This document shows positions 1 through 10,834 of a stretch of DNA of 10,834 nt, piece after piece. Origin of the DNA: Planctomycetota bacterium. GTDB taxonomy: Bacteria > Planctomycetota > MHYJ01 > JACPRB01. Numbering within the stretch: position 1 is the stretch's first letter; each line of letters starts with the position of its first letter. Location: the NCBI GenBank assembly GCA_016200125.1, contig JACQFK010000127.1, positions 1-10,834 on the forward strand. The letters are read 5' to 3'. Below the pieces are notes generated by a model. That model was not told the DNA's origin and searched no databases. It saw only the letters and a list, made by a program, of their open reading frames with translations. A program made the translations under genes and the position numbers.

Positions 1-110
1 AGGAACTGCTCGATCCGGTCGAATTGAAAGCGCTGCCCGTCGACGAGCCGGATTTCGAAGGGCTGGAAGGGCCTCTTGGCCGCGTACTTGTCGACGTCCG
101 ATTTTCTCAT
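1..110 (-). CDS. Small protein with RPFxPFxIxLxDG motif, 3' end outside window
   Basis: This open frame starts at an ATG whose bases overlap the TGA of the upstream TPR gene (ATGA, a 4-nt overlap), which indicates translational coupling and that the frame is real although truncated. The 36 visible residues begin MRKSDVDKYAAKRPFQPFEI and continue with RLVDGQRFQFDRIEQF. The pattern RPFxPFxIxLxDGxxF is typical of short (about 80-110 residue) proteins of unknown function that are frequent in Planctomycetota and some other phyla; that family statement is from memory. The stop lies left of the window. No function can be assigned. Confidence 0.75.
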   Translation of the reverse strand, partial: MRKSDVDKYAAKRPFQPFEIRLVDGQRFQFDRIEQF

Positions 111-1405
111 TTTTTCGATTTGATCCGATCGAGCGCCTTCTTGGCGTCCTCGTGCTTCGGATCGGCCGAGAGGGCCTCCTTGTACTCGCGCTCGGCGTCC
201 TTTTTCCGGTCCAGCCGCTCGAGGGAGAGCCCCAGGTTGTAGTGGGCGGGGGCGCTTTCGGGGTCGGCCTGCACCGCCTTCTCCAGGGTCTGGCGGGCGA
301 GGTCGTTCTGGTCCTTGCCGAGATAGGCCGCGCCCAGGTTCGTCAGCGCGGGCTCGAAGGCCGGGTCGAGGACGACGGCCTTCTTGAGCGCGTCGATCGC
401 CCCCTCGCTCTTCGACTGCTTGAGCAGGCAGACGCCGAGGTTGTAGTGGTGGTTCGAGTCGTCGGGGTCGATCTCGACCGCCCGCTTGTATTCGGCCTCG
501 GCGTCGGGGAAGCGCGCCTGCTTCATGTGGATCGTCGCGATCGTGGAGTGCAGGTCGGCGAACTCGGGGCAGATCTGCGAGGCGGCCTGGAAATCGCCGA
601 GCGCGTCGGACAGCTTGCCCTCCCGGTAGTACTGCTCGCCGCTCTGGTAGCGCAGGAGGAAGCGCTTGCGGTCCTCCGCCGTCAGCGTGGACGCCGGGAA
701 GATGCGGAAGGAGCGCATCGAGGCGTCGACGATCGGGTAGTAGCGCTCGAACCAGGCCTGGCTGGTGTTGAAGCCGAGCACGTACTTGCGGTCGCCGTCG
801 GAGATGAACGTGAAGAGCGCCTGCTGGACCACGGGGAGGTCGCCGTCGGTGAAGGTCACGCTGAACTGGTAGCCCTGCTTGTCGCGGATCGCCGAGGCCT
901 CCTCGTAGACGAACTGGACGTCCTTGACGCCCTTGCGGAAGGCGTCCTTGTAGGCGGTGACGAAGTCGACGAGCTCCTTTTTGCTCACCTGGTAGAAGAG
1001 GTCCATGCGGGGCTGGTAGAGCTGGTCCTTGGGGCCCCAGAAGCTGGCGGCCGCCTGGCCGGAGGACTTGCCGTAGGCCCACTTGGGCGGCAGGTAGAGC
1101 TTGAAGGCGTAGAAGGGGTGGGCGTAGGGCGCGCCGAGCTTCGCCGGCTTCTTCGCCATCATCCCCTTGGGGAGCGTGAAGTCCTTCTTCTCGATGCGCT
1201 CGACGAGGTCCTTCTCGACGCTGACCTTGCCGTTGGCGGTCTCGACCTCGAGCCGGTCGCCCTTGTCGCTGACCTTGCCCTCGATCTTCCCGCCGTTGCG
1301 GAGGTGGACGATGTCCTCCTCCGCCAAGGCTAGGGAGGACAGGTCGCCGAAGGCGAGGCCCGAGAGCAGGAGGAAGGCGAGGACGCTCCGCATGACTGCC
1401 ATCAC
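107..1405 (-). CDS. Secreted TPR-repeat protein with N-terminal LRNGGxIEGKV segment and PsbP/Mog1-like middle domain
   Basis: A 432-residue exported protein of unknown specific role, probably a periplasmic or surface-attached scaffold. Residues 1-28 look like a Sec signal peptide with a hydrophobic core (VLAFLLLSGLAFG) ending near ALA. Residues 29-75 (LRNGGKIEGKV and following) are a small beta-rich segment often found at the N-terminus of planctomycete exported proteins. Residues about 90-236 are alpha/beta and resemble the PsbP/Mog1 fold (weak call). Residues about 250-419 form five tandem 34-residue TPRs, with recurring YNLGxxL and AxxxDP signatures. Three starts compete: GTG at 1405, ATG at 1402 and ATG at 1393; the last gives the cleanest signal peptide. 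None has a good Shine-Dalgarno site, and a TATAGT box at 1404-1409 hints at a very short leader, though no matching -35 is seen. The 52-nt gap upstream (1406-1457) holds nothing else recognisable. Confidence 0.88.
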   Translation of the reverse strand: MMAVMRSVLAFLLLSGLAFGDLSSLALAEEDIVHLRNGGKIEGKVSDKGDRLEVETANGKVSVEKDLVERIEKKDFTLPKGMMAKKPAKLGAPYAHPFYAFKLYLPPKWAYGKSSGQAAASFWGPKDQLYQPRMDLFYQVSKKELVDFVTAYKDAFRKGVKDVQFVYEEASAIRDKQGYQFSVTFTDGDLPVVQQALFTFISDGDRKYVLGFNTSQAWFERYYPIVDASMRSFRIFPASTLTAEDRKRFLLRYQSGEQYYREGKLSDALGDFQAASQICPEFADLHSTIATIHMKQARFPDAEAEYKRAVEIDPDDSNHHYNLGVCLLKQSKSEGAIDALKKAVVLDPAFEPALTNLGAAYLGKDQNDLARQTLEKAVQADPESAPAHYNLGLSLERLDRKKDAEREYKEALSADPKHEDAKKALDRIKSKK

Positions 1406-2208: not shown

Positions 2209-2460
2209 CTACCAGCCCAGCTTGTCCGGGGTCACCTGCGCGACGACCTTGCAGTCGCAGGCGCCGCCGAGGGACTTGAGCGCGTCGACGAGGGCCTCCA
2301 TGTCGACGCCCATGCGGCCGGCCCACTCCTCGGTGCGCGCGTGGCTGTGGTCGCAGACGATCTTCAGGCCGAAGGTCTTCCCGTCGAGGAAGGCGCGCAG
2401 TTCCTTGAACTGCGCCGCGTTCAGTCCGAGCTTCGCCCGCGCCGCTTCCATGTCGCCCAT
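2209..2460 (-). CDS. DUF2695-family small protein
   Basis: An 83-residue protein with the DUF2695 signature: a CDH motif (C36, H38) in a segment where family members usually read CDHTxRxTxxWL, here CDHSHARTEEWAGRMG, followed by a helix and the closing GGxCDCxVxAxV motif (C68 and C70). The paired Cys/His groups suggest metal binding, but no function has been established that I know of. The start at 2460 is well supported by AGGAGG six bases upstream; reading the frame further upstream would discard this site and run into the divergent gene. It heads a minus-strand group continuing with the DUF6882 gene 16 nt downstream. Confidence 0.88.
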   Translation of the reverse strand: MGDMEAARAKLGLNAAQFKELRAFLDGKTFGLKIVCDHSHARTEEWAGRMGVDMEALVDALKSLGGACDCKVVAQVTPDKLGW

Positions 2461-2466
2461 CGTGGC

Positions 2467-2472
2467 CCTCCT
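2467..2472 (-). promoter_or_regulatory. Shine-Dalgarno site AGGAGG that fixes the start of the DUF2695 gene
   Basis: A perfect AGGAGG on the minus strand with a 6-nt spacer to the ATG at 2460. It is the clearest ribosome-binding site in the window and argues against the much longer minus-strand frame through this gene. Confidence 0.8.
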
Positions 2473-2527
2473 GGCAGCCTTTTCTATCCTACTTCTCCCC
2501 CGAGAGATTGCTCGAAGAAAACGGCAT

Positions 2528-2556
2528 CCGGAGGGGAACACTCCCCCGCCCTCCGG
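2528..2556. repeat. 8-bp perfect inverted repeat between divergent genes
   Basis: CCGGAGGG at 2528-2535 and CCCTCCGG at 2549-2556 are exact reverse complements separated by 13 nt, and a second small stem (GGGGA/TCCCC) nests inside. The element lies in the 108-nt divergent intergenic region (2461-2568) and ends 12 nt before the ATG at 2569. It could be an operator or a 5'-UTR hairpin controlling translation. No T-run follows on either strand, so it is not a classical terminator. Confidence 0.45.
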
Positions 2557-2568
2557 CGTCACAAGGGC

Positions 2569-3330
2569 ATGAGAACCTTCATCGCATGTCTGTTCGTCGG
2601 CTCTGCGGTCGCGGCCCCGCAGGACGAGAAGAAGCCGAACCGCTTCCTCGAACTCAACCCGGGATACCGCGAGCGCGCCGGCGCCTTCTACGAGAAGACG
2701 TATCTCGGGCCCGCCGCAGAGTCGCTGGCGAAGGCGGTCGCTGTGGAGCGGCTCACGAAGGAGGCCGCGTCCGGCGTCCTCAGGCAGTACATCTACGACT
2801 GGCTGGATGGCTACATCGCGGGGGAGGGCGAGATGTCGCGCGCCGCGCATGCGGCCGTGGTGAAGCGGGCGGACCTGGCCATGAACCCGCTTCTCGACGA
2901 CGGGCCGGCCTTCCAGCGCTGGGTCGAATGGCGGGAGAACCTGCAGCCCGGCGGGAACGTGCTGGCGTTCATCACCAGCGCGAGGGTTGCGATGGCGGGA
3001 TTGCCGCTGACGCTTCCGGAGTCGTTCGCGAAGGAGGGATGGACGCGTCGCTCCCTCGAGGACGACGAGCAGGTCGCGCCGTACCAGCGGGGCTTCCCCG
3101 CCCTGCCGCACCAGGTGCTCCTCTTCGAACAGGAGAACGGCGTCCGGATCGCGCTGATCGTGTTCCGCGCCGGCCGGGCGCAGGAACTGCTCGCCGCGCT
3201 CGAGAAGGCGGGGGACCCGGACCTGCGGGTCTTCAGGCGCACGATGCAGTTCGTCGTTTTCGCCGTCGAAACGGGGGCGGTTCCGGAATCGCTGAAGGAG
3301 CGGCTGCGGCGGCAGCTCGTGACGAAGTAG
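2569..3330 (+). CDS. Secreted protein of unknown function
   Basis: The only plus-strand gene: 253 residues beginning MRTFIACLFVGSAVAAPQDE. Residues 1 to about 16 are a short Sec signal peptide with an AVA cleavage site, so the mature protein is probably periplasmic. The rest is a mixed helical/strand protein without repeats or obvious catalytic motifs; a tyrosine-rich segment (RQYIYDWLDGY) and a C-terminal beta segment (HQVLLFEQENGVRIALIVFR) stand out. I do not recognise the family. The long frame can be read upstream from 2134, but that would overlap the well-supported DUF2695 gene and bury the signal peptide, so the ATG at 2569 is chosen despite a weak ribosome site. Its stop at 3330 faces the stop of the next gene at 3344 with only 13 nt between; no terminator hairpin is visible there. 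Confidence 0.8.
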   Translation: MRTFIACLFVGSAVAAPQDEKKPNRFLELNPGYRERAGAFYEKTYLGPAAESLAKAVAVERLTKEAASGVLRQYIYDWLDGYIAGEGEMSRAAHAAVVKRADLAMNPLLDDGPAFQRWVEWRENLQPGGNVLAFITSARVAMAGLPLTLPESFAKEGWTRRSLEDDEQVAPYQRGFPALPHQVLLFEQENGVRIALIVFRAGRAQELLAALEKAGDPDLRVFRRTMQFVVFAVETGAVPESLKERLRRQLVTK

Positions 3331-4043: not shown

Positions 4044-5174
4044 TCATCCCCCTTTGAAGCTCCTGAACCTGATGAGGTCCGCCGGGGTCACCGAGGGCCG
4101 CAGCGTCTTGAGGACCCGCTGGAAGTCCGCGTCCGCGACCGGGCGCTCCGTCGCGAGCTCGACCGACTCGAGGAAGGTCTGCTCGGCGACCTTGCGGCAG
4201 AGATAGGCGATGTCGGCGCCGCTGTAGCCCTCCAGGCGGTCCGCGAGCGCGTCCATGTCGACGTCCTCGCAGAGCGGGATGTCCTTCAGGTTGAGCTCGA
4301 GGATCTTCTTCCGCGCCGCCCGGTCGGGGAGGCCGACGAAGACTTTCTCGTCGAGCCGGCCGGGGCGGAGCATCGCGTAGTCGATGCTCCAGGGCTCGAT
4401 GGTGGCGCCCATGAACATCACGTTCTGCCCTTCGCGCGCCTCGAAGCCGTCGAGTTCGGCCAGGATCTGGGGGACGACGCGGGCCATGACGCTGCCGGCC
4501 TCCGCATCGCGCCGCTTGGGGATCAGGGACTCCACCTCGTCGATGAACACGACGGCCTTGGCGCAATTGCGGGCGGTCTCGAACAGCTTGCGGATGTTCT
4601 TCTCGCTCTCGCCGACCCACTTGTTGAGGATCTCGGCGGGCGCGATGGCGAAGAAGGTGGCGTCGAGCTCGCCGGCGACCGCCTTGGCGATCATGGTCTT
4701 GCCGGTCCCCGGAGGCCCGTAGAGCAGGATCCCGCCGCCGGTCTTCACCTTGTACTTCTTCGCCTTCTCGGGGAAGGTGAAGGGGAAGATCATCTTGATG
4801 CGGATCTGCTCCTTCACGTCCTCGAGGCCGGCGATGTCGTCGAAGCGGATCTTCGGCTTCTCGGAGAGGGTCCAGTCCTTCGGGATGCCCTGCTGGTCCT
4901 CTTCCGACGCGGGCGCCCCGGCCTTGACCGCGGCCGCCTGCTCGCGGACCTTCTGCTTGCGCTCCTTCACGGTCTTCGCGAGCGTGACGAGCTCCTGGGC
5001 CTGCTTCATACGCGCGGCGCGCAGCTTCGGCTCGCTCTCTTTCGCCAGCTGGAGCAGGTACTCGGCGGCCTTGAGGAAATGGTACTTGGCCTCCTCGAGC
5101 TCGCCCATGCGGAAGCGGGCGATGCCCTTGGCCTTGTGCTTCTCGAAGGACTCCAGGAGGAAGGGTTTGGGCAT
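4044..5174 (-). CDS. MIT-domain AAA+ ATPase, Vps4-like
   Basis: A 376-residue ATPase with the layout of eukaryotic and archaeal Vps4/CdvC, the enzyme that disassembles or remodels ESCRT-III polymers. Residues 5-75 form a three-helix MIT domain (GELEEAKYHFLKAAEYLLQL matches MIT helix 2). A linker leads to the AAA module at about 108-375: FDDIAGLEDVK, Walker A GPPGTGKT (153-160), pore loop KWVGESEK (186-192), Walker B VVFIDE (208-213), arginine-finger region LRPGRLDE (269-276), GYSGADIA (317-323), and a C-terminal KTLRPSVTPADLIRF helix very like the Vps4/katanin C-terminus. One oddity: sensor 1 reads GATIEPW where GATNxP is usual, so the normal asparagine is Ile259. The start at 5174 is chosen because it overlaps the upstream TGA (TGATG coupling); the frame upstream of it lacks MIT character. 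It ends in tandem TGA TGA. The protein is expected to act at the cytoplasmic membrane on the ESCRT-III-like neighbours. Confidence 0.92.
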   Translation of the reverse strand: MPKPFLLESFEKHKAKGIARFRMGELEEAKYHFLKAAEYLLQLAKESEPKLRAARMKQAQELVTLAKTVKERKQKVREQAAAVKAGAPASEEDQQGIPKDWTLSEKPKIRFDDIAGLEDVKEQIRIKMIFPFTFPEKAKKYKVKTGGGILLYGPPGTGKTMIAKAVAGELDATFFAIAPAEILNKWVGESEKNIRKLFETARNCAKAVVFIDEVESLIPKRRDAEAGSVMARVVPQILAELDGFEAREGQNVMFMGATIEPWSIDYAMLRPGRLDEKVFVGLPDRAARKKILELNLKDIPLCEDVDMDALADRLEGYSGADIAYLCRKVAEQTFLESVELATERPVADADFQRVLKTLRPSVTPADLIRFRSFKGG

Positions 5175-5620
5175 CAGTCGTCCCACTTGACGCGCTGCTG
5201 TTCCGCGGGCGGGTTCCCGATCGTCAGGGATCGGCCGTCCTTCGCGTCGACCCGCGCGCCCAGGGCGGACCACTTTCCGCCGCTGCGGACCAGCCAGACG
5301 ACCGCAGCCCTCTCCCGGGGCTCCTTAGATCCCAGGATGGAGTAGCTGAACTGGGCATTTCCGCCGTCGTTGACGACCTGGATGTTCCACCCCCACCATT
5401 TCCGCCGGATCGTGGCGTCGCCGAAGGCCTCCTGTACGGCGGGCGCGCTCCTGAGATAGGCCGCCCCGATCTCGGCGGTGGAGTCCGATCCCCGGTAGAT
5501 GCCGTAGAAGATCGCGCCGCAGCCGCCCATGCCCAGCAGGAAGACCGCCGTCAGGACGCCGCAGCCGACGAGGAGGTACTTCATCGGACCGGCGGGCTTT
5601 TTGGGCGCGGGATCGGCCAC
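5174..5620 (-). CDS. Single-pass membrane protein with Coa1-like domain
   Basis: A 148-residue protein with a short basic/proline-rich N-terminus (MADPAPKKPAGPMK), one transmembrane helix at about 14-41 (YLLVGCGVLTAVFLLG, then a glycine-rich end), and a roughly 100-residue C-terminal domain. That domain (residues 50-135: a helix with AVQEAFGDATI, then strands around WWGWNIQVV, QFSYSILG, AAVVWLVRSGGKWSALGARV) follows the pattern of the Coa1/Tim21-type fold seen in many bacterial hypothetical membrane proteins; this is fold-level resemblance only. It starts at GTG 3 nt after the ESCRT-III-like gene (GGGAG about 9 nt upstream) and its TGA overlaps the ATG of the MIT-AAA gene, so it is tightly embedded in the cluster. 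The tight coupling suggests a membrane anchor or sensor for the machinery rather than cytochrome oxidase assembly. Confidence 0.82.
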   Translation of the reverse strand: MADPAPKKPAGPMKYLLVGCGVLTAVFLLGMGGCGAIFYGIYRGSDSTAEIGAAYLRSAPAVQEAFGDATIRRKWWGWNIQVVNDGGNAQFSYSILGSKEPRERAAVVWLVRSGGKWSALGARVDAKDGRSLTIGNPPAEQQRVKWDD

Positions 5621-5623
5621 CGG

Positions 5624-6226
5624 TTAGCGCTCCCGGTCCAGCTCGTCCTGGATGTCCTTGAGCCCCTTTTCGATGTCCTTGTCGAGCGATCCGTCGCCCT
5701 CCTCGTGGACGACCTCCTCGTCGAGCATCTTGTCGATCTCGGCGTCGCTGACCACCTGGTCCTCGCCTTCGACCTCGCCGGACATGACGTGCTCCTGGGT
5801 CATCTCGAGGAAGATCTCCATCTGCTGTTGGAGCGTCTCGGCCTGCATCATGGCCTTCTCGAAGTTCTTCTGGGTCTTGGCGAAGTCGACCGAGCCGTAG
5901 ACCTCGCTCACCGCCTTGGCGACGGAGCCCATGGACTTGGCGAAGTCGGCGTCGCTCTCCGCCTGGTTCTTGATCTGGACGGCGGTCTCGATCGAGAGCA
6001 GCTGGCGCTCGCGCATCCGCTTCTGAGCGGCGGTCTTCTTCAGCTGGCGCTTGAGGAAGTCGTACTGGGACGAGTCGCCGATCCGCCTGGCCTTCTTCGC
6101 CTTGAGGATGTAGGAGGACTCGTGCTTGGCGAGGTCGCGGATGTTCCGCTTGAGCGAATTGACGCCCTTGCGGACCTCGATGTCCCGCTCGATCCGCTTC
6201 TCCTCCTTGGACTTGAACATGCCCAT
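5624..6226 (-). CDS. ESCRT-III (Snf7/CHMP)-like protein with C-terminal MIM1-like motif
   Basis: A 200-residue, almost entirely helical protein that follows the CHMP/Snf7 plan end to end. Residues 1-15 (MGMFKSKEEKRIERD) resemble the amphipathic N-terminus. Residues 15-50 and 52-90 are the strongly basic alpha1/alpha2 hairpin. Residues 94-113 (FAKSMGSVAKAVSEV) match alpha3 of CHMP2, where the pattern is SMAxAMKGVTKAM. Residues 114-147 (KTQKNFEKAMMQAETLQQQM) are alpha4. Residues 157-175 (VVSDAEIDKMLDEE) are acidic alpha5. The tail has D182, I185, G188, L189 and I192 in DKDIEKGLKDIQDEL, close to the MIM1 consensus (D/E)xxLxxRLxxL(K/R) that binds Vps4 MIT domains. Known ESCRT-III proteins polymerise on membranes; here the neighbours encode two MIT-AAA ATPases. 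An AGGAG site just upstream favours the ATG at 6220 (MFKSK), with 6226 as the outer start. The gene lies 3 nt after the ATPase gene and 3 nt before the Coa1-like gene. Confidence 0.88.
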   Translation of the reverse strand: MGMFKSKEEKRIERDIEVRKGVNSLKRNIRDLAKHESSYILKAKKARRIGDSSQYDFLKRQLKKTAAQKRMRERQLLSIETAVQIKNQAESDADFAKSMGSVAKAVSEVYGSVDFAKTQKNFEKAMMQAETLQQQMEIFLEMTQEHVMSGEVEGEDQVVSDAEIDKMLDEEVVHEEGDGSLDKDIEKGLKDIQDELDRER

Positions 6227-6231
6227 CTCCT
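6227..6231 (-). promoter_or_regulatory. Shine-Dalgarno site AGGAG overlapping the upstream stop codon
   Basis: AGGAG on the minus strand shares bases with the TAG (6232-6230) that ends the broken MIT-AAA gene. It abuts the ATG at 6226 but has an ideal 6-nt spacing to the second ATG at 6220, so translation of the ESCRT-III-like protein probably starts at MFKSKEEK, two residues in from the longest reading. Confidence 0.55.
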
Positions 6232-6775
6232 AATCTTCCTCCGCGCTCTCTTTCCAATTGTAGTACTTCTGCATCTCCTCGGGCGTCGTCTGCGGATGGA
6301 TGATCCGCGCCGCGGCGTCGAAGTCCTGCCGCGTCAGCGGCCGCACCTTGATCCGGTACTTCTTCACCGTGTCGAGCCCCTGGTCGACCAGGGCCGGGAT
6401 GTCGCGGTTGACCTCCTCGACCATGCCGGTGGTGACCTCCTTGCAGAAGCGCTCGATCTCGCGGCCGCTGTAGCCCTCGGTCATCTTCGCGAGCTCGCCG
6501 AAGCCGACCTCGGTGGGGAAGCCCTTCTTCTCGAGGTGGATCCTTAGGATGCGCTCGCGGGTCGATTCGTCGGGCAGCGGGATCAGGATCTTCTTCTCGA
6601 AGCGCGAGAGCACGGCGCTGTCGAGGTCCCAGGGCCGGTTCGTCGCGGCGATCGTGAGGACGTAGATGTCGTCGCGTCCCTTCTCGGCGAGCCCGTCGAG
6701 CTCCGACAGGATCGTCGAGAGGATCCGCCGCTCGGTGCCCGTGTCGCCCTCGTTGCGGCTCCCGCAGAGCAGCTT
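6230..6775 (-). CDS. C-terminal part of the broken MIT-AAA ATPase (post-Walker-B region, arginine finger, C-terminal helix)
   Basis: About 181 residues open from the breakpoint, with no start codon of their own that makes biological sense (a GTG at 6613 is the first start-like codon but lies inside the AAA fold). It contains GDTGTERRILSTILSELDGL, sensor 1 IAATNRPWDLD with the normal asparagine, the arginine-finger region SRFEKKILIPLPDE typical of the meiotic AAA clade (Vps4, katanin, fidgetin, spastin), MTEGYSGREIE, and a closing LTRQDFDAAARIIHP segment equivalent to the Vps4 C-terminal region. Confidence 0.7.
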   Translation of the reverse strand, partial: KLLCGSRNEGDTGTERRILSTILSELDGLAEKGRDDIYVLTIAATNRPWDLDSAVLSRFEKKILIPLPDESTRERILRIHLEKKGFPTEVGFGELAKMTEGYSGREIERFCKEVTTGMVEEVNRDIPALVDQGLDTVKKYRIKVRPLTRQDFDAAARIIHPQTTPEEMQKYYNWKESAEED

Positions 6776-7368
6776 TCGCCGAAGTACTTGGACAGGATGG
6801 ACGAGACCTTGACGTTGTAGAAGACGCTCGGGACGCCCTCGGTGGACTTCACGGCGTTCGAGGTGGCGGCGGCGAGCAGGGTCTTGCCGGTGCCCGGCGG
6901 CCCGTAGAAGAGGATGCGGGTCCAGGCGGCGATCTTGACGCCGGCCGGGTGCTGGGCAAGGGTCATGCCCAGCGCGAACTTGATTTCGTTCTTGGTCTCG
7001 TCGAGGCCGCCGATGTCCTCCCAGGTGATCTTCGACGCGTGGGAGAGGTTGGAGACGATGGACTTGATCTCGCCCCCGGCGCCGACCTTCGAGGCCGGCT
7101 CCTTGTCGGAGGTGGATTCGGAGGAGCGGGCGGGCGGGTCGGAATAGACCTCGCCCGAGCGGAGCCGCTGGGCGATGGCGCGGTACTCGATCGCCATCTT
7201 CTTGCGGCGCTCCTCGGCCTCGCGCCCGTGGGCCTGCTCGGCCCAGGTCGACATGAGCGTGGCCGCCTTCTCGTACGCGGAGGCGGCCTTGGCCCAGTCC
7301 TTGGCCTCGGCGAAGGTCTTCGCCTTCGCCAGCGCCTGCTTCAGGGGGGCCTGGACGTCGACTTCCAT
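6583..7368 (-). CDS. N-terminal part of the broken MIT-AAA ATPase (MIT domain, Walker A, pore loop)
   Basis: As an open frame this encodes 261 residues, of which only the first about 199 are genuine. Residues 5-72 are a MIT domain (AEAKDWAKAASAYEKAATLM is helix 1-2). Residues 73-112 are a serine-rich linker. Residues 113-199 are the first half of an AAA module: ITWEDIGGLDETK, FYGPPGTGKT with Walker A at 156-163, and pore loop SKYFGE. Residues 200-261 (rich in R, S and T) are out-of-frame read-through and should be ignored. The start at 7368 follows the upstream TAG by 2 nt and is in keeping with the MIT boundary. Confidence 0.7.
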   Translation of the reverse strand: MEVDVQAPLKQALAKAKTFAEAKDWAKAASAYEKAATLMSTWAEQAHGREAEERRKKMAIEYRAIAQRLRSGEVYSDPPARSSESTSDKEPASKVGAGGEIKSIVSNLSHASKITWEDIGGLDETKNEIKFALGMTLAQHPAGVKIAAWTRILFYGPPGTGKTLLAAATSNAVKSTEGVPSVFYNVKVSSILSKYFGESCSAGAATRATRAPSGGSSRRSCRSSTGSPRRDATTSTSSRSPRRTGPGTSTAPCSRASRRRS

Positions 7369-7370
7369 CG

Positions 7371-7979
7371 CTACTCTGCTTCCATCTCCGAGTCGCGCTT
7401 CTCCTTCTCGCGCACCGCCTTGTCGGCCATCTTGAGGCCGTCGGAGAAGTTCTCGATCTCGCCCTCGTCCATCTTCTGCCAGACGTCCATGACCTCCGAG
7501 CCCTCCTTGCCGAGGTCCTCGGTGATCTGGTTGGCGCCCTCGGTGACCGTGGAGAGCACGCCGTTGAGCTTCTCCAGGTACATCTCCTGGGAGATCTTGT
7601 CGTCCTCGAGGTAGGTCATGAGCTTCGCCTCGTCGACGCGCTCGAGGATGCGGGAGACGCCGTCCTTGGAGGTCTGGCGCCGCTCGAGGGCGAGCTTGAG
7701 GGCGGAGATCGTCGTGATCTCCTTGGAGAGCACGCTGAGCTCGCGCTCCATGGTCTTCACGCCGGAGGACTTGAGCTCGTAGAGGCGCGCGAGCTGGCGC
7801 CGGCGGGGCGGCGACTTGATCTTGAGCCCCTTGGCGAAGATGTCCTCGCGCTCCTTCTCCAGCTTTTCGAGCTTGGCGAGCGTCTGGGTCTCGCGGATGC
7901 CGAGCTTGATCTCCTCGCGCTTCACCTGCTCGAGGGAGAGCTCCTTCTTCTTCAGTCCCAGATAGTCCATCAGTCCCAT
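7371..7979 (-). CDS. ESCRT-III-like helical protein, paralogue of 8083-8733
   Basis: A 202-residue all-helical, highly charged cytoplasmic protein. It is clearly homologous to the product of 8083-8733: shared IRExQxL (28-34), a basic FAKGLKIKSPPRRRQLAR block (48-65), MERELS (77-82), LALERRQ (96-102), YLEDDKIS (123-130), and a WxxMDEGE acidic segment (167-174) followed by FSDGLKMA (178-185). The long basic hairpin, then an acidic helix and a short C-terminal amphipathic motif is the ESCRT-III arrangement, though sequence similarity to eukaryotic CHMPs is lower than for 5624-6226. F178, G181, L182 and A185 match a MIM1-like spacing. A GAGG lies 8 nt before the ATG. The stop is 2 nt before the broken MIT-AAA gene, so the two are co-expressed. 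A 103-nt spacer with heptamer repeats separates it from the upstream gene. Confidence 0.82.
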   Translation of the reverse strand: MGLMDYLGLKKKELSLEQVKREEIKLGIRETQTLAKLEKLEKEREDIFAKGLKIKSPPRRRQLARLYELKSSGVKTMERELSVLSKEITTISALKLALERRQTSKDGVSRILERVDEAKLMTYLEDDKISQEMYLEKLNGVLSTVTEGANQITEDLGKEGSEVMDVWQKMDEGEIENFSDGLKMADKAVREKEKRDSEMEAE

Positions 7980-8016
7980 CTTCAGCGCCTCGTCCGCAAC
8001 CCCGAAATCCGGCCTT

Positions 8017-8031
8017 TCCCCCGCAGGGGGA
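8017..8031. repeat. C/G-tract hairpin in the spacer between the two ESCRT-III-like paralogues
   Basis: TCCCCC (8017-8022) and GGGGGA (8026-8031) pair perfectly around a 3-nt loop, and the G-run continues with a second tract to 8039. On the transcribed (minus) strand the RNA would carry a C-tract then a tight hairpin, without a following U-run, so it is not a standard intrinsic terminator. It could slow polymerase, stabilise a processed mRNA end, or be a G-quadruplex-prone tract on the plus strand. Confidence 0.4.
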
Positions 8032-8043
8032 GGGGGGGGAACT

Positions 8044-8085
8044 CCATTCGATTTTCGGTTTTCGATTTTCGGTTTTCGCTCTTCA
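8044..8085. repeat. Heptanucleotide tandem repeat, NNNTTCG, six units
   Basis: Six in-phase 7-nt units start at 8044, 8051, 8058, 8065, 8072 and 8079. The middle four alternate ATTTTCG, GTTTTCG, ATTTTCG, GTTTTCG; the flanks are CCATTCG and CTCTTCA. On the minus strand the units begin CGAA, and the array begins inside the TGA stop of the gene at 8083-8733. The register and the TTCG core are the same as in the array at 4003-4037, although the variable bases differ. Confidence 0.65.
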
Positions 8086-8733
8086 TGCAGGCTCGGCTTC
8101 GCCCGCCTCCGCTTGCTTTTCCTTCTCTTTGCCTTCTTTCTGTCCGCCCGCCTTCTCGCGGTCGGTGGCCTCCTTGAGGCCCTCGCCGAACTCCAGCTCG
8201 CCCTCGTCCATCTGCTCCCAGGTCTTGAGGACTTCGAGGCCCTCGTTGCCGATGTCCTGGCTGTCGTAGGCGGGGTCGTTCACCACGCCGAGGAGCAGGT
8301 CGAGCTTCTGGCTGTAGACCTCCTCGCTGATCTTGTCGTCCTCGAGGAGGGTGGTCAGCTTCATCAGGTCCTCCTCCTTGAGGCGCTGGAGGATGTTCTG
8401 GGAGGCCGGGATCTGGCGCTGGCGCTCGAGGATGCCGCGCACGCGGGTGAGGGTCATGAGCTCCTTCACGACGCGGGAGAGCTCGCGCTCGATCATGCTG
8501 ATGCGCTGGGAGTAGTCGCCGAAGCGGCGGGCGTAGATGCGGCGCCGGGCGGGGGACTTGTTCTTCGCGCCCTGGTGGAAGACCTCCTCGCGGAGCTTGT
8601 CGTACTTGTCGATCTGGCGGAGGTGCTGGTTCTCGCGGATCTCCAGGCGCTTCTCCTCCACCCGGATCTCCTCGAGCCCGAAGTCCGTCAGCCCCTTCTT
8701 CCCCTTGGTGAAAATCTGGCCCAGGATCGACAT
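8083..8733 (-). CDS. ESCRT-III-like helical protein with charged C-terminal tail
   Basis: A 216-residue helical protein. After a short N-terminus (MSILGQIFTKGKKGL, possibly amphipathic) comes a long basic helical hairpin (about 20-108) containing FHQGAKNKSPARRRIYARR (52-70), IERELSR (81-87) and LERQRQ (102-107). Next come LLEDDKISEEVY (129-140), a third helix (LDLLLGVV), and the acidic WEQMDEGELEF (172-182). F182, G185, L186 and A189 form the same MIM1-like spacing as in the other two ESCRT-III-like proteins. Residues 190-216 are a disordered K/E/A-rich tail absent from its paralogue at 7371-7979. The start at ATG 8733 is one base after the preceding TGA, with GAGGA about 5 nt upstream inside the previous gene's last codons, indicating translational coupling. 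Its role is probably a membrane-associated polymer subunit (inference). Confidence 0.82.
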   Translation of the reverse strand: MSILGQIFTKGKKGLTDFGLEEIRVEEKRLEIRENQHLRQIDKYDKLREEVFHQGAKNKSPARRRIYARRFGDYSQRISMIERELSRVVKELMTLTRVRGILERQRQIPASQNILQRLKEEDLMKLTTLLEDDKISEEVYSQKLDLLLGVVNDPAYDSQDIGNEGLEVLKTWEQMDEGELEFGEGLKEATDREKAGGQKEGKEKEKQAEAGEAEPA

Positions 8734-8734
8734 G

Positions 8735-9403
8735 TCATTCCTCGAACATGATCTCGGGAGGCTCCTTCTCGCGGACCGGGGCCTCGGCCTTCTTCTCCTT
8801 CTCCTTGACGGGGCGGAGCTCCTCCTTCTTTTCGGGGATCCGCTCGCGGACGGGTTCCTCCGGCGCGGGGCGCTCCATCTCCCGGAGGATCTCCTTCTCC
8901 TCGTCGTCGGGCTGGGCCGTCTCGGGGGCCAGGGCGATGCCCTCGGCGAGCTCCTTGGTCTTCTCCAGGTCCTCCAGGAGCTGCTTGGCCTTGATCGCCA
9001 TGTCCTCCATGGTCTTCTTGTCGGGCAGGGCCTCGCTGGTGAGCTCGAGGATGGTCTCGAGCGACGCGACGTGCTCGTTGAGCACCTTGAGGCGCTTGTT
9101 GTAGATGTTCTCGATGCGGTTGTTGAGCTCCTGCATCTTCCAGCGGATCTCCTTGATCCGCCGGGCCAGCATGAGCTTGCGCGCGTCCGAGATGTCGCTC
9201 TTGCCCTCCTCGAGCAGCTCCTCCTCGGCGCGGTCGAGCTCCTCGAGATCGGCCATGGCGCGGCGGCGGCGGGACTCGTCCCTCCGGCGCGCCTCCTTGA
9301 GGAGCACCAGGGCCTCGCGCTCGTTGCGCGCGCCGCGGTAGAGCGGCGTCACCTCCTCGGGGAGGTCCTTCACGCCCAGCATTTTCCGGATCTTTTCCAG
9401 CAT
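8735..9403 (-). CDS. Coiled-coil protein with ESCRT-III-like helical core and charged proline-containing tail
   Basis: A 222-residue protein. Residues 25-155 are predicted by eye as long charged helices. The segment EEGKSDISDARKLMLARRIK (65-84) is placed like the basic GxKxKSPxRRRxxAR block of the two ESCRT-III-like paralogues next door, and is followed by a helix (IKEIRWKMQELNNRIENIYN) at the position of their IERELS helix. This suggests a third, more diverged member of the same superfamily, but a generic coiled coil is not excluded. Residues 156-222 are disordered, rich in E, K and P (ERPAPEEPVRERIPEKK); the prolines vaguely recall MIM2-type MIT ligands, which is weak evidence. The N-terminus MLEKIRKMLGV could be an amphipathic membrane helix. 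The start at 9403 is 3 nt after the upstream TAG, and the stop is one base before the ATG at 8733. Confidence 0.78.
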   Translation of the reverse strand: MLEKIRKMLGVKDLPEEVTPLYRGARNEREALVLLKEARRRDESRRRRAMADLEELDRAEEELLEEGKSDISDARKLMLARRIKEIRWKMQELNNRIENIYNKRLKVLNEHVASLETILELTSEALPDKKTMEDMAIKAKQLLEDLEKTKELAEGIALAPETAQPDDEEKEILREMERPAPEEPVRERIPEKKEELRPVKEKEKKAEAPVREKEPPEIMFEE

Positions 9404-9406
9404 GCG

Positions 9407-10246
9407 CTATCCGTACACCCGGGTCAGACGGTAGGGCCGCGCGGTCGTGTCGAACCGGACGTACCGGTCCTCCGCGGCGATCTGCTCGAAGGCCTCGCGG
9501 ATGATCGGGATCGCGTAGCCCAGCGCGTCGAAAACGGTGTCCTCCGTGAGTTCGTCCATCAGCAGCTCGAAGGTGTGGCGCGAGACCCAGCGCCGCACCG
9601 CCTCCACCTTCTCGTCCTCGCTCGAGAGGTCGAAGATGCGCGCCGCGGCCCGCCAGCGGGGGTCGGGCGCGTAGTAGGTCCGCCAGGCCCCCTGGTTCAC
9701 GTCCGACAGCGCGATCAGGTAGTTGTTGCCCACCAGCGCGCGCCGGGCGTCGTCGTCCCAGGAGCTCGTCGCGAAGGCGTCCACGTAGTAGAAGACGTGC
9801 TCGCTGCGCACGATCTGGTCCTTCACCCGGACGAGCTCCGAGGCGGGGATCCGGCCGCGCGACGCGCCCGAGCGGACCAGCTCCTCGACGGGGCTGAAGG
9901 CGGCCCCCGCCACCACCACCCTTACGGACGGGCGGCCGAGCAGCTCCTTGTGCACGATTTCGTACACCACGGTCTCGTTCTTCGGCATCTCCTCGTAGGC
10001 GCGGAGAAGGTCGCGCTCCGCGAAGCGCTTGATCAGCGTTTTCACCTCACTAGACCTCTCGTCGAGGGCCTTTGTGACACGGTTTCGGGGCGAGGCGTCG
10101 TAGGTGCGGTTCGTCAGCGGGTCGAAGAGCCCCGCCGTCGCGTTCATGTTCGCGGAGAGGCGCTCGAAGAAATTCTCCTCGGCCACGCGGGCGGCCTTGC
10201 GGTCGACCTCGGCGGCGGGGGCTTTCCGGACGCGGGTGCTGGCCAT
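9407..10246 (-). CDS. Unrecognised cytoplasmic protein with possible C-terminal winged helix, first gene of the ESCRT-like cluster
   Basis: A 279-residue soluble protein without signal peptide or membrane segment. Residues 1-105 are mainly helical (a KLIKRFAERDLLRAYEEM-type stretch). Residues 106-200 alternate strands and helices (VRVVVAG, EHVFYYVDAFATSSWDD, NNYLIALSD, WRTYYAPD). Residues 222-277 look like a winged helix: helix FELLMDEL, helix EDTVFDALG, a recognition-like helix IPIIREAFEQIAAED, then RYVRF and PYRLTRV strands. The fold call is by eye. Winged-helix domains are used as protein-protein modules in ESCRT-II and in archaeal CdvB, so a role as adaptor for the adjacent ESCRT-III-like proteins is conceivable. 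No family is recognised. It ends 3 nt before the coiled-coil gene. The ATG at 10246 has no Shine-Dalgarno site; the leader is C-rich and structured. Confidence 0.75.
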   Translation of the reverse strand: MASTRVRKAPAAEVDRKAARVAEENFFERLSANMNATAGLFDPLTNRTYDASPRNRVTKALDERSSEVKTLIKRFAERDLLRAYEEMPKNETVVYEIVHKELLGRPSVRVVVAGAAFSPVEELVRSGASRGRIPASELVRVKDQIVRSEHVFYYVDAFATSSWDDDARRALVGNNYLIALSDVNQGAWRTYYAPDPRWRAAARIFDLSSEDEKVEAVRRWVSRHTFELLMDELTEDTVFDALGYAIPIIREAFEQIAAEDRYVRFDTTARPYRLTRVYG

Positions 10247-10338: not shown

Positions 10339-10834
10339 TCAGGCGCCCTTGGCGAGGGTCTTCCGCATCCAGAGGTCGAGCACCGGCTTGTCGGAGTGCT
10401 TCCAGATGTCGACCGCCCGCGCGGGCCGCGTGGGGGCGGTGGATTTCCAGAGCAGGAGGCGGCGGCCGTCGCCGTCCGAGGCGCAGATGAGGTCGCTCGC
10501 CGCGTCCAGGATGCCGATGGGGGCGCCGTCCGACTCGTAGGAGGTCTCCAGGTTCTGGCCGATGACGCGGGCGCGGACCGAAAGGTCGCGCGCGCTGTAG
10601 ATCAGGTGGGGGATCGCGCAGATGCGGGCGAGCCGCAGGTTCACGATCGGCTCCCGCTTCCGCACGAGCACCACGGGCTGGTCGGGCGCGTCCGCCTTCC
10701 AGCAGACGATGGACCCGTTCTCGGTGCCCGCGAAGATCGTGCGCGCCGCGGCGGCGATGCAGGTCACGGGACTTTCGATGCTCGAGACGTACTTGACCGG
10801 CTCGCCGCTCGCGTCGGCGGGCGCGGTGAAGACG
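10339..10834 (-). CDS. WD40/beta-propeller repeat protein, 5' end outside window
   Basis: The C-terminal 164 residues of a larger protein; the frame is open to the right edge. At least three propeller blades can be seen: SPVTCIAAAARTIFAGTENG followed by SIVCW, then PIVNLRLARICAIPHLIYSA, and APIGILDAASDLICASDGDG followed by RRLLLWKS. Each shows the strand-turn-strand pattern with a (S/T)xDGxxxxW-like ending. The protein ends shortly after IWKHSDKPVLDLWMRKTLAKGA-type sequence. WD40 propellers are protein-interaction scaffolds. The gene lies 92 nt upstream of, and in the same direction as, the ESCRT-like cluster, so it may be part of it. A comparison is katanin, where a MIT-AAA subunit works with a WD40 subunit. 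The codon at 10767 is GTG but is internal valine, not the start. Confidence 0.8.
   Translation of the reverse strand, partial: VFTAPADASGEPVKYVSSIESPVTCIAAAARTIFAGTENGSIVCWKADAPDQPVVLVRKREPIVNLRLARICAIPHLIYSARDLSVRARVIGQNLETSYESDGAPIGILDAASDLICASDGDGRRLLLWKSTAPTRPARAVDIWKHSDKPVLDLWMRKTLAKGA

What the first reader, a model, noticed from the sequence alone, without database searches (positions are those of the whole stretch)
4044..10246. A bacterial ESCRT-III/Vps4-like membrane-remodelling operon
Seven consecutive minus-strand genes, most joined by 1-4 nt or overlapping junctions, encode three to four ESCRT-III-like helical proteins, two MIT-AAA ATPases, a one-pass membrane protein and a possible winged-helix adaptor. 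MIT-AAA plus Snf7-type proteins with MIT-binding tails is the defining core of ESCRT in archaea and eukaryotes. The recognised bacterial superfamily members, Vipp1 and PspA, lack a Vps4 partner. Surrounding genes (DUF6882, DUF2695, RPFxPF-type protein) and ribosome sites are bacterial. If confirmed, this is a complete ESCRT-like module in a bacterium, possibly for vesicle formation, internal membranes or division.
Basis: partly seen in the sequence, partly recalled or inferred. Interest (0 to 1): 0.95.

Follow-up and report, generated by a model that had tools for sequence, protein, structure and literature searches.

The report
A bacterial ESCRT-III/Vps4 membrane-remodelling operon

Summary
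Minus-strand bases 4044-10246 hold eight genes, most 1-3 nt apart, preceded by the end of an SPFH/beta-propeller gene. The 200-aa protein is a Snf7-family ESCRT-III protein: for a profile of 43 relatives the eight best PDB matches are CHMP3, CHMP2A and yeast Snf7 (best 3.1e-5), and 32 of 43 match Pfam Snf7. One intact ATPase has a Vps4 C-terminal domain and a weakly supported MIT domain; the second is broken here by a 76-bp deletion removing Walker B, but open in relatives. Two further proteins are predicted to have the ESCRT-III hairpin. The host is bacterial: Snf7 is in 55 of 392 Planctomycetota genomes, once on a 2.45-Mb contig with a bacterial 16S gene, and Snf7 divergence tracks 16S (r 0.97, 9 genomes). 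A Vps4-type ATPase accompanies Snf7 in 42 of 44 loci. None of the 55 carriers has FtsZ, but none of the 392 genomes passes the FtsZ cut-off, so that contrast is empty. My searches found no report of this system; a 2024 survey says ESCRT with Vps4 is confined to archaea and eukaryotes. Function (membrane scission, perhaps cytokinesis) is inferred. Winged-helix and coiled-coil assignments are unproven.

The parts
4044..5174 (-). VpsB: single AAA ATPase with Vps4 C-terminal domain and a likely N-terminal MIT domain (376 aa)
   Evidence: AAA 1.2e-38, AAA_lid_3, Vps4_C 24.6 bits over cut-off 21.3; CdvC model aligned from residue 12 to 366, 231 bits, but CDC48 249 bits; MIT 15.3 bits, under the cut-off of 30; start ATG and 1-nt overlap
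5174..5620 (-). 148-aa protein with one N-terminal membrane helix and a small C-terminal domain
   Evidence: hydrophobic stretch read by eye in the translation; Coa1 0.017, under cut-off; found in 3 of 44 loci: window, L002, L053; absent from L001
5624..6226 (-). Snf7-family ESCRT-III protein (200 aa) with a conserved C-terminal MIM1-like helix
   Evidence: PF03357 2.1e-5, 24.7 bits against a cut-off of 27.3; profile A5 against PDB: eight best rows are CHMP3, CHMP2A, SNF7; 32 of 43 relatives match PF03357; predicted helices 7-49 and 52-110
6230..7368 (-). VpsA: second Vps4-type ATPase, broken in this contig (ORFs 7368-6583 and 6613-6230; 76 bp including Walker B absent between 6771 and 6770)
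   Evidence: open in L002 and L003
7371..7979 (-). E5: ESCRT-III-like helical protein (202 aa), paralogue of E4 (41-42% identical)
   Evidence: no structure predicted for E5 itself
8083..8733 (-). E4: ESCRT-III-like helical protein (216 aa)
   Evidence: model pLDDT 75, helices 20-57 and 61-107; 15 of the 20 best Foldseek rows are ESCRT-III superfamily but all E >= 0.73
8735..9403 (-). E3: charged, predicted coiled-coil protein (222 aa, by eye), conserved in the operon, family unassigned
   Evidence: found in 38 of 44 loci; no PDB relative at E below 0.06
9407..10246 (-). g2: 279-aa protein, C-terminal part perhaps winged helix (by eye only)
   Evidence: found in 39 of 44 loci; no convincing family or PDB match
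10339..10834 (-). C-terminal propeller part of an SPFH/beta-propeller protein, cut by the window edge
   Evidence: full-length in L001 and L002; Band_7 matches 7 of 17 full-length members, best 1.8e-5; propeller part matches WD40-type structures

Best explanation
The window carries an operon, conserved in several classes of Planctomycetota, that encodes a Snf7-family ESCRT-III protein, two paralogues predicted to share its helical hairpin, and AAA ATPases of likely Vps4 type (one intact, one broken in this contig), which together would assemble and take apart filaments that bend or cut membranes. Proposed mechanism, inferred throughout: Snf7 and E4/E5 polymerise on the cytoplasmic face of a membrane. 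VpsA and VpsB bind the conserved C-terminal helix of Snf7 through MIT-like N-terminal domains and pull subunits out of the filament, which drives constriction and recycling. The SPFH/propeller protein and g2/E3 would place the filament at a membrane site. The leading guess for the process is the last step of cell division in these FtsZ-lacking lineages (about 40%), ahead of internal vesicle or invagination formation (about 35%) and membrane repair.
For: Snf7 identity: the eight best PDB matches of a 43-sequence profile are all ESCRT-III, four at E <= 0.001 (best 3.1e-5) and four at 0.03-0.06; 32 of 43 match PF03357 at E <= 0.05; 13 of the 14 best Foldseek rows are ESCRT-III, though E >= 0.095. 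ATPases: 33 of 44 VpsA/VpsB members match Vps4_C at E <= 0.05; the CdvC model aligns nearly end to end; among the 60 rows shown for the VpsA of L003, the best single-AAA match is katanin, 179 bits, against about 140 per Cdc48 domain; the N-terminal profile matches VPS4 MIT structures over positions 5-73 of 79. Linkage: Snf7 with a VpsA/VpsB-type ATPase on the same strand in 42 of 44 loci, within 1 kb in 37; distances of operon proteins correlate, Mantel r 0.67-0.92. Coupling motif: strict MIM1-like pattern (recalled consensus) in 6 of 43 Snf7 tails, loose pattern in 27 of 43 against 0.04 and 0.87 in shuffles. Host: 55 of 392 Planctomycetota genomes; 17 of 20, 11 of 12 and 10 of 23 genomes of three classes; operon and bacterial 16S on one 2.45-Mb contig of G250; Snf7 against 16S distance r 0.97 over 9 genomes. 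Division hint: FtsZ in 0 of 55; murD 31-1,834 bases from Snf7 in 13 of the 14 loci I fetched from the class of G250.
Against: FtsZ absence is phylum-wide (0 of 392 over the cut-off, 10 of 392 at E <= 0.001), so it does not single out ESCRT carriers; 337 of 392 planctomycete genomes gave no Snf7 match, so most of these FtsZ-less bacteria must divide without this operon. SPFH and propeller parts recall archaeal protein-sorting ESCRT loci more than Cdv division loci. Foldseek finds no match at E <= 0.001 for either model, and VIA-align does not separate ESCRT-III from other helical folds (for Snf7 the first ESCRT-III row is rank 10). TPR designs outscore MIT for the N-terminal domain, and CDC48 outscores CdvC for both ATPases. 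In L031 the ATPase is a 102-aa piece at a contig end 4 kb away. VpsA is broken in this contig. The Snf7 gene carries an in-frame stop in G002, G004 and, near its end, G275.
Confidence: 0.84

Rival explanations
1. The helical proteins are derived PspA/Vipp1 proteins, the known bacterial ESCRT-III branch, that acquired an AAA partner of Cdc48 type; the system maintains membrane integrity under stress.
For: PspA/Vipp1 belong to the same superfamily (PMC8281802). 24 of 55 carrier genomes also have a PspA over the cut-off. VpsB and VpsA score somewhat better with CDC48 than with CdvC. E4's structural neighbours include Vipp1 and PspA as well as CdvB.
Against: The 43 Snf7 relatives match PF03357 in 32 cases, and PspA is not among the 21 families matched at E <= 0.05. 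The PspA hits lie on other contigs than the Snf7 hits. The PDB profile search lists CHMP and SNF7, no Vipp1 or PspA.
Confidence: 0.1
2. The same ESCRT module serves internal membranes: invagination, vesicle budding or membrane-protein sorting, as proposed for the archaeal adaptin-type ESCRT loci, and not cell division.
For: SPFH and beta-propeller domains in the operon recall the SPFH protein of the Meth_adaptin and the propellers of the Halo_adaptin loci. An ORF with a Ser/Thr kinase motif lies on the same strand in the stretch held in 7 of 44 loci. Carriers are a minority of the planctomycete genomes searched, which lack a clear FtsZ.
Against: No cargo or coat gene was identified, and I made no search aimed at one; one class has murD next to the operon in 13 of 14 fetched loci. 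The SPFH/propeller gene is found in 20 of 44 loci only.
Confidence: 0.35
3. The operon is an anti-phage or other conflict system built on an IetA-like AAA ATPase.
For: VpsB and VpsA match IetA models of PADLOC with up to 110 and 114 bits; E4 matches a Drt5 model at 6.9e-5 (20 bits) and E3 a candidate model at 0.003.
Against: The ATPase match lies mainly in the shared AAA domain and is far below NCBIfam's IteA cut-off (99 and 107 of 510 bits). Snf7, g2 and the SPFH/propeller protein match no defence model at E <= 0.01. Inheritance follows 16S in the 9 genomes compared, and no relative was found in IMG/VR contigs.
Confidence: 0.02
4. The contig is archaeal or eukaryotic, or the operon is a contaminant in planctomycete bins.
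For: The window itself has no assembly, and the three named carriers are metagenome bins.
Against: Operon and bacterial 16S/23S on one 2.45-Mb contig; near-universal in two classes; Snf7-16S correlation 0.97; the 14 homologue rows, of 360 listed, that carry an organism name are all Planctomycetota.
Confidence: 0.02

Closest known systems
Archaeal ESCRT loci of Meth_adaptin/Halo_adaptin type (Makarova et al. 2024, PMC10936438; abstract and passages read)
   Same: Vps4-type ATPase next to ESCRT-III genes, with SPFH or beta-propeller proteins in some loci and a wH protein upstream of ESCRT-III
   Different: Host is bacterial; two ATPases in many loci; SPFH and propeller fused in one protein; no adaptin-like protein identified; wH in g2 not shown
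CdvABC cell division system of TACK archaea (CdvB = ESCRT-III, CdvC = Vps4)
   Same: ESCRT-III plus a single-AAA ATPase with N-terminal MIT-like domain; the CdvC model aligns nearly end to end to VpsB
   Different: CdvC score 231, far under the model's cut-off of 650; no CdvA identified (not searched for); extra SPFH, g2 and E3 proteins; division role untested
Eukaryotic ESCRT-III (CHMP2A, CHMP3, Snf7) and Vps4
   Same: Profile homology to CHMP3, CHMP2A and SNF7; Vps4_C domain; MIM1-like tail
   Different: No ESCRT-0, -I or -II components identified; low identity; MIT assignment weak
Bacterial PspA/Vipp1 (Liu et al. 2021, PMC8281802; passages read)
   Same: ESCRT-III superfamily hairpin (here predicted)
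   Different: No PF04012 match; operon has its own Vps4-type ATPases; PspA genes lie elsewhere in 24 of 55 carriers

Membership tests
ESCRT-III (Snf7/CHMP/CdvB) | Sequence-profile homology to Snf7-family proteins | tested here: met
   window 24.7 bits (cut-off 27.3), G001 relative 29.8 bits over the cut-off, 32 of 43 relatives at E <= 0.05, eight best PDB matches all ESCRT-III
ESCRT-III (Snf7/CHMP/CdvB) | Long alpha1-alpha2 hairpin followed by shorter helices | tested here: inconclusive
   predicted in Snf7 (7-49, 52-110) and E4 (20-57, 61-107); structural matches led by ESCRT-III but not significant and not separated from other helical folds
ESCRT-III (Snf7/CHMP/CdvB) | C-terminal MIT-interacting motif | tested here: inconclusive
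   strict MIM1-like pattern 6 of 43, loose 27 of 43, shuffles 0.04 and 0.87; consensus recalled; related sequences are not independent; the window's own tail fits only the loose pattern
ESCRT-III (Snf7/CHMP/CdvB) | Forms membrane-bound filaments | not testable with these tools
   needs protein
Vps4/CdvC | Single AAA domain with Walker A and B | tested here: met
   VpsB in the window; 44 of 44 aligned members match AAA; the window's own VpsA lacks the Walker B region and was not in that set
Vps4/CdvC | Vps4 C-terminal domain | tested here: met
   window VpsB 24.6 bits over 21.3; 33 of 44 members at E <= 0.05; the VpsA of L002 is under the cut-off, that of L003 over it
Vps4/CdvC | N-terminal MIT domain | tested here: inconclusive
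   whole-domain matches to VPS4/SKD1 MIT, best 0.0021, but partial TPR matches score better; Pfam MIT 3 of 41 at E <= 0.5, TPR_2 16 of 41, window member 15.3 bits under cut-off 30
Vps4/CdvC | Groups with Vps4/CdvC in an AAA tree | not tested
   no archaeal or eukaryotic reference sequences could be fetched; CDC48 249 against CdvC 231 bits for VpsB
PspA/Vipp1 | Matches the PspA_IM30 model PF04012 | tested here: not met
   absent from the 21 families matched by 43 Snf7 members at E <= 0.05 and the 25 matched by 44 E4/E5 members at E <= 0.1; PspA hits in 28 of 55 genomes lie on other contigs
SPFH (Band 7) | Band_7 domain in the operon's propeller protein | tested here: met
   7 of 17 full-length relatives at E <= 0.05, best 1.8e-5; the N-terminal part lies outside the window

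The most novel reading that the evidence does not exclude
Several classes of Planctomycetota divide with an ancient, vertically inherited ESCRT-III/Vps4 machine that takes the place of FtsZ. Either ESCRT predates the archaeal lineage, or it passed between domains early enough to become the core division or endomembrane machine of a large part of a bacterial phylum.
Probability: 0.3. Interest if true: 0.97.

Novelty: new variant of a known kind. Interest (0 to 1): 0.9.

Why it matters
[quoted passage not shown] A conserved bacterial Snf7 plus Vps4-type operon breaks that boundary and bears on where ESCRT arose. [quoted passage not shown]

Tried and rejected
Rejected: plain PspA/Vipp1 identity; archaeal or eukaryotic contamination; defence system. 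FtsZ replacement as a discriminating argument: 0 of 55 carriers have an FtsZ match, but 0 of 392 planctomycetes pass the cut-off and only 10 of 392 reach E 1e-3, so the contrast is empty.

Led nowhere: single-sequence PDB searches with Snf7 and E5; PDB profiles of E4, E3 and g2; NCBIfam on the helical proteins; VIA-align on both models (ESCRT-III not separated from BAR, bMERB and designed helical proteins); IMG/VR scan (155 stretches matched a pattern, none encodes a relative). hhalign between the Snf7 and E4 families gave 64% probability, between Snf7 and E3 0.6%, between E3 and E4 15%. Spread beyond Planctomycetota could not be tested: no genome handle of another phylum was reachable. Kinship, names and completeness of the genomes behind G handles are not told by the tool.

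Parts given, of what I had: Snf7 alignment A5 43 of 44; E4/E5 alignment A6 44 of 52; ATPase alignment A7 44 of 54; g2 alignment A8 28 of 39; SPFH/propeller A9 17 of 18; E3 alignment A10 31 of 38. Regions were fetched for 40 of the 52 carrier genomes other than G001-G003.

Literature: in the held PMC library found no report of a bacterial Snf7 plus Vps4 operon (one search was about FtsZ-less division); bioRxiv and most subscription papers are not held. Seen: abstract and passages of PMC10936438; passages of PMC8281802, PMC8970359, PMC5147048 and PMC7203096 (of the last only the first 300,000 characters are held); the rest only as listings.


Full report
What is there. The minus strand from 10834 to 4044 carries a tight gene run: the end of an SPFH/propeller gene, g2, E3, E4, E5, VpsA, Snf7, a one-helix membrane protein, and VpsB. 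The junctions in that order are 92, 3, 1, 103, 2, 3 and 3 nt and a 1-nt overlap. VpsA is broken: 76 bp, including the Walker B region, are missing between bases 6771 and 6770 relative to L001, L002 and L051. L002 and L003 have it open. Whether this is a strain mutation or an assembly fault is unknown.

Snf7. The 200-aa protein matches Pfam Snf7 at 2.1e-5, 24.7 bits, under the curated cut-off of 27.3; its relative in G001 is over it. A profile of 43 relatives (identity to the window protein 41-91%) searched against the PDB sequences returned nine rows at E <= 10: the first eight are CHMP3 (four, 3.1e-5 to 0.001), CHMP2A (one, 0.029) and yeast SNF7 (three, 0.05-0.064); the ninth is FtsA at 0.48. 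Scanned singly, 32 of 43 match PF03357 at E <= 0.05, and PspA is not among the 21 families found. The AlphaFold2 model (pLDDT 69.7) has helices 7-49, 52-110, 115-147, two short ones and a last helix 180-199. In Foldseek 13 of the 14 best rows are ESCRT-III, but the best E is 0.095, and VIA-align does not separate ESCRT-III from other helical folds.

E4, E5, E3. E4 and E5 are paralogues and belong to one family present in 42 of 44 loci. Sequence alone does not assign them. The E4 model (pLDDT 75.2) shows a short N-terminal helix, a 38- plus 47-residue hairpin and short helices. Of the 20 best Foldseek rows 15 are ESCRT-III superfamily (CdvB, CdvB2, Asgard ESCRT-IIIB, Loki CHMP4-7, CHMP1B, Vipp1), all with E >= 0.73; VIA-align puts Asgard ESCRT-IIIB first but tied with unrelated hairpins. 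I call E4 and E5 predicted ESCRT-III-like; E5 was not modelled itself. E3 has no such support.

ATPases. Window VpsB has AAA, AAA_lid_3 and Vps4_C over their cut-offs. The NCBIfam CdvC model aligns from residue 12 to 366 with 231 bits, CDC48 over the AAA part with 249; for the VpsA of L002 the figures are 163 and 178. For the VpsA of L003 the best single-AAA match among the 60 PDB rows shown is katanin, 179 bits over 114-401, against about 140 bits for each domain of the top Cdc48 row. Vps4_C is matched by 33 of 44 VpsA/VpsB members. The 79-position N-terminal profile of 41 members matches VPS4A/VPS4B/SKD1 MIT structures over nearly its whole length (best 0.0021), but consensus TPR proteins score higher over part of it, and Pfam MIT appears for 3 of 41, TPR_2 for 16 of 41. 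MIT is likely, not shown. A conserved C-terminal helix of Snf7 resembles MIM1 (consensus recalled): strict pattern in 6 of 43, loose in 27 of 43, against 0.04 and 0.87 in shuffled tails; the sequences are related, so this is not a significance test.

Accessory parts. The SPFH/propeller protein matches Band_7 in 7 of 17 full-length members and WD40-type propellers by profile. g2 has no convincing family match; its C-terminal part looks winged-helix by eye only. The TM gene is found in 3 of 44 loci.

Host and spread. The window has no assembly. Three named MAGs of Planctomycetota encode Snf7 at 91, 79 and 60% identity. L002 has the window's gene order throughout; L001 has it without the TM gene, with VpsB cut by the contig end; L003 has g2 to Snf7 with one added small gene and no VpsB found after it. 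A profile finds Snf7 in 55 of 392 Planctomycetota genomes drawn evenly from the phylum: in 10 of 23, 17 of 20 and 11 of 12 genomes of three classes whose names the tool does not give. In G250 the operon (near 1.04 Mb) and a full bacterial 16S gene (2.27 Mb) lie on one contig of 2,453,463 bases. Of 14 carriers searched for 16S, 10 gave a match, nine of them full length; over those nine, Snf7 and 16S distances correlate at 0.97, with 16S identity down to 0.76 (six of the nine belong to the class of G250). That argues for old vertical inheritance. All 14 homologue rows bearing an organism name, of 360 listed, are Planctomycetota. In 44 loci (window, L001-L003 and regions of 40 other carriers) a VpsA/VpsB-type ATPase accompanies Snf7 on the same strand in 42, within 1 kb in 37; in L031 it is only a 102-aa piece 4 kb away. 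g2 is found in 39, E3 in 38, the E4 family in 42, the SPFH/propeller protein in 20, VpsA in 36 and VpsB in 21. In the two loci without an ATPase Snf7 lies near a contig end (L052) or on a 7-kb contig (L057).

What it does. The anatomy fits an ESCRT-III filament system with Vps4-type disassembly. The process is inferred. For division: 0 of 55 carriers have an FtsZ match, while 13 of 14 control genomes do, and murD, over its cut-off in the two members tested, lies 31 to 1,834 bases from Snf7, on the opposite strand, in 13 of 14 loci of one class. Against a special link: no planctomycete of 392 passes the FtsZ cut-off, and 337 of 392 gave no Snf7 match. For sorting or vesicles: SPFH and propeller proteins occur in archaeal adaptin-type ESCRT loci, and a kinase-motif ORF is on the same strand in 7 of 44 loci.

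Known or new. Makarova et al. [quoted passage not shown] Liu et al. [quoted passage not shown] Rivas-Marin et al. 2016 hold no mention of ESCRT or Cdv in the main text and call division in these bacteria a mystery. Six searches found no report of this operon. One databank entry already bears the name 'Snf7 family protein [Planctomycetota bacterium]', so the gene has been annotated, but I found no paper on it. I rate it a new variant of a known kind, highly surprising for its host.

Noticed in passing
window 6770-6771: VpsA lacks 76 bp including the Walker B region compared with three relatives, and changes frame; strain mutation or assembly fault.
   Followed up: partly
L002 8880-8882; also Snf7 hits in G004 and G275: In-frame TAA stops in the Snf7 gene: in L002 just before the conserved C-terminal helix, whose codons continue after the stop.
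   Followed up: partly
L036 10046-11635, and L037, L038, L039, L040, L041, L044, L045, L046, L061, L062, L063, L064: murD (peptidoglycan ligase) lies 31 to 1,834 bases from Snf7 on the opposite strand in 13 of 14 fetched loci of one class.
   Followed up: partly
L036 6259-7350, L037 12427-13578, L038 12433-13617: Extra protein with an MIT-like N-terminal stretch (by eye) between E4 and VpsA in these three loci.
   Followed up: partly
L032, L034, L042, L047, L048, L059, L070: ORFs with a Ser/Thr kinase motif on the operon strand; kinases also occur in some archaeal ESCRT loci.
   Followed up: partly
window 107-1405, 1458-2192, 2209-3111: Flanking genes: TPR protein, DUF6882 protein, and an ORF with DUF2695.
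   Followed up: yes
window, L001-L003, L049-L051, L053, L054, L070: The E4 family has two copies in these ten loci and one copy in 32 others, so the ESCRT-III-like set was duplicated in some lineages.
   Followed up: partly
10 of 392 planctomycete genomes, e.g. G117:C529, G044:C206: Weak FtsZ/tubulin-family hits under the FtsZ cut-off in genomes that are not Snf7 carriers.
   Followed up: no
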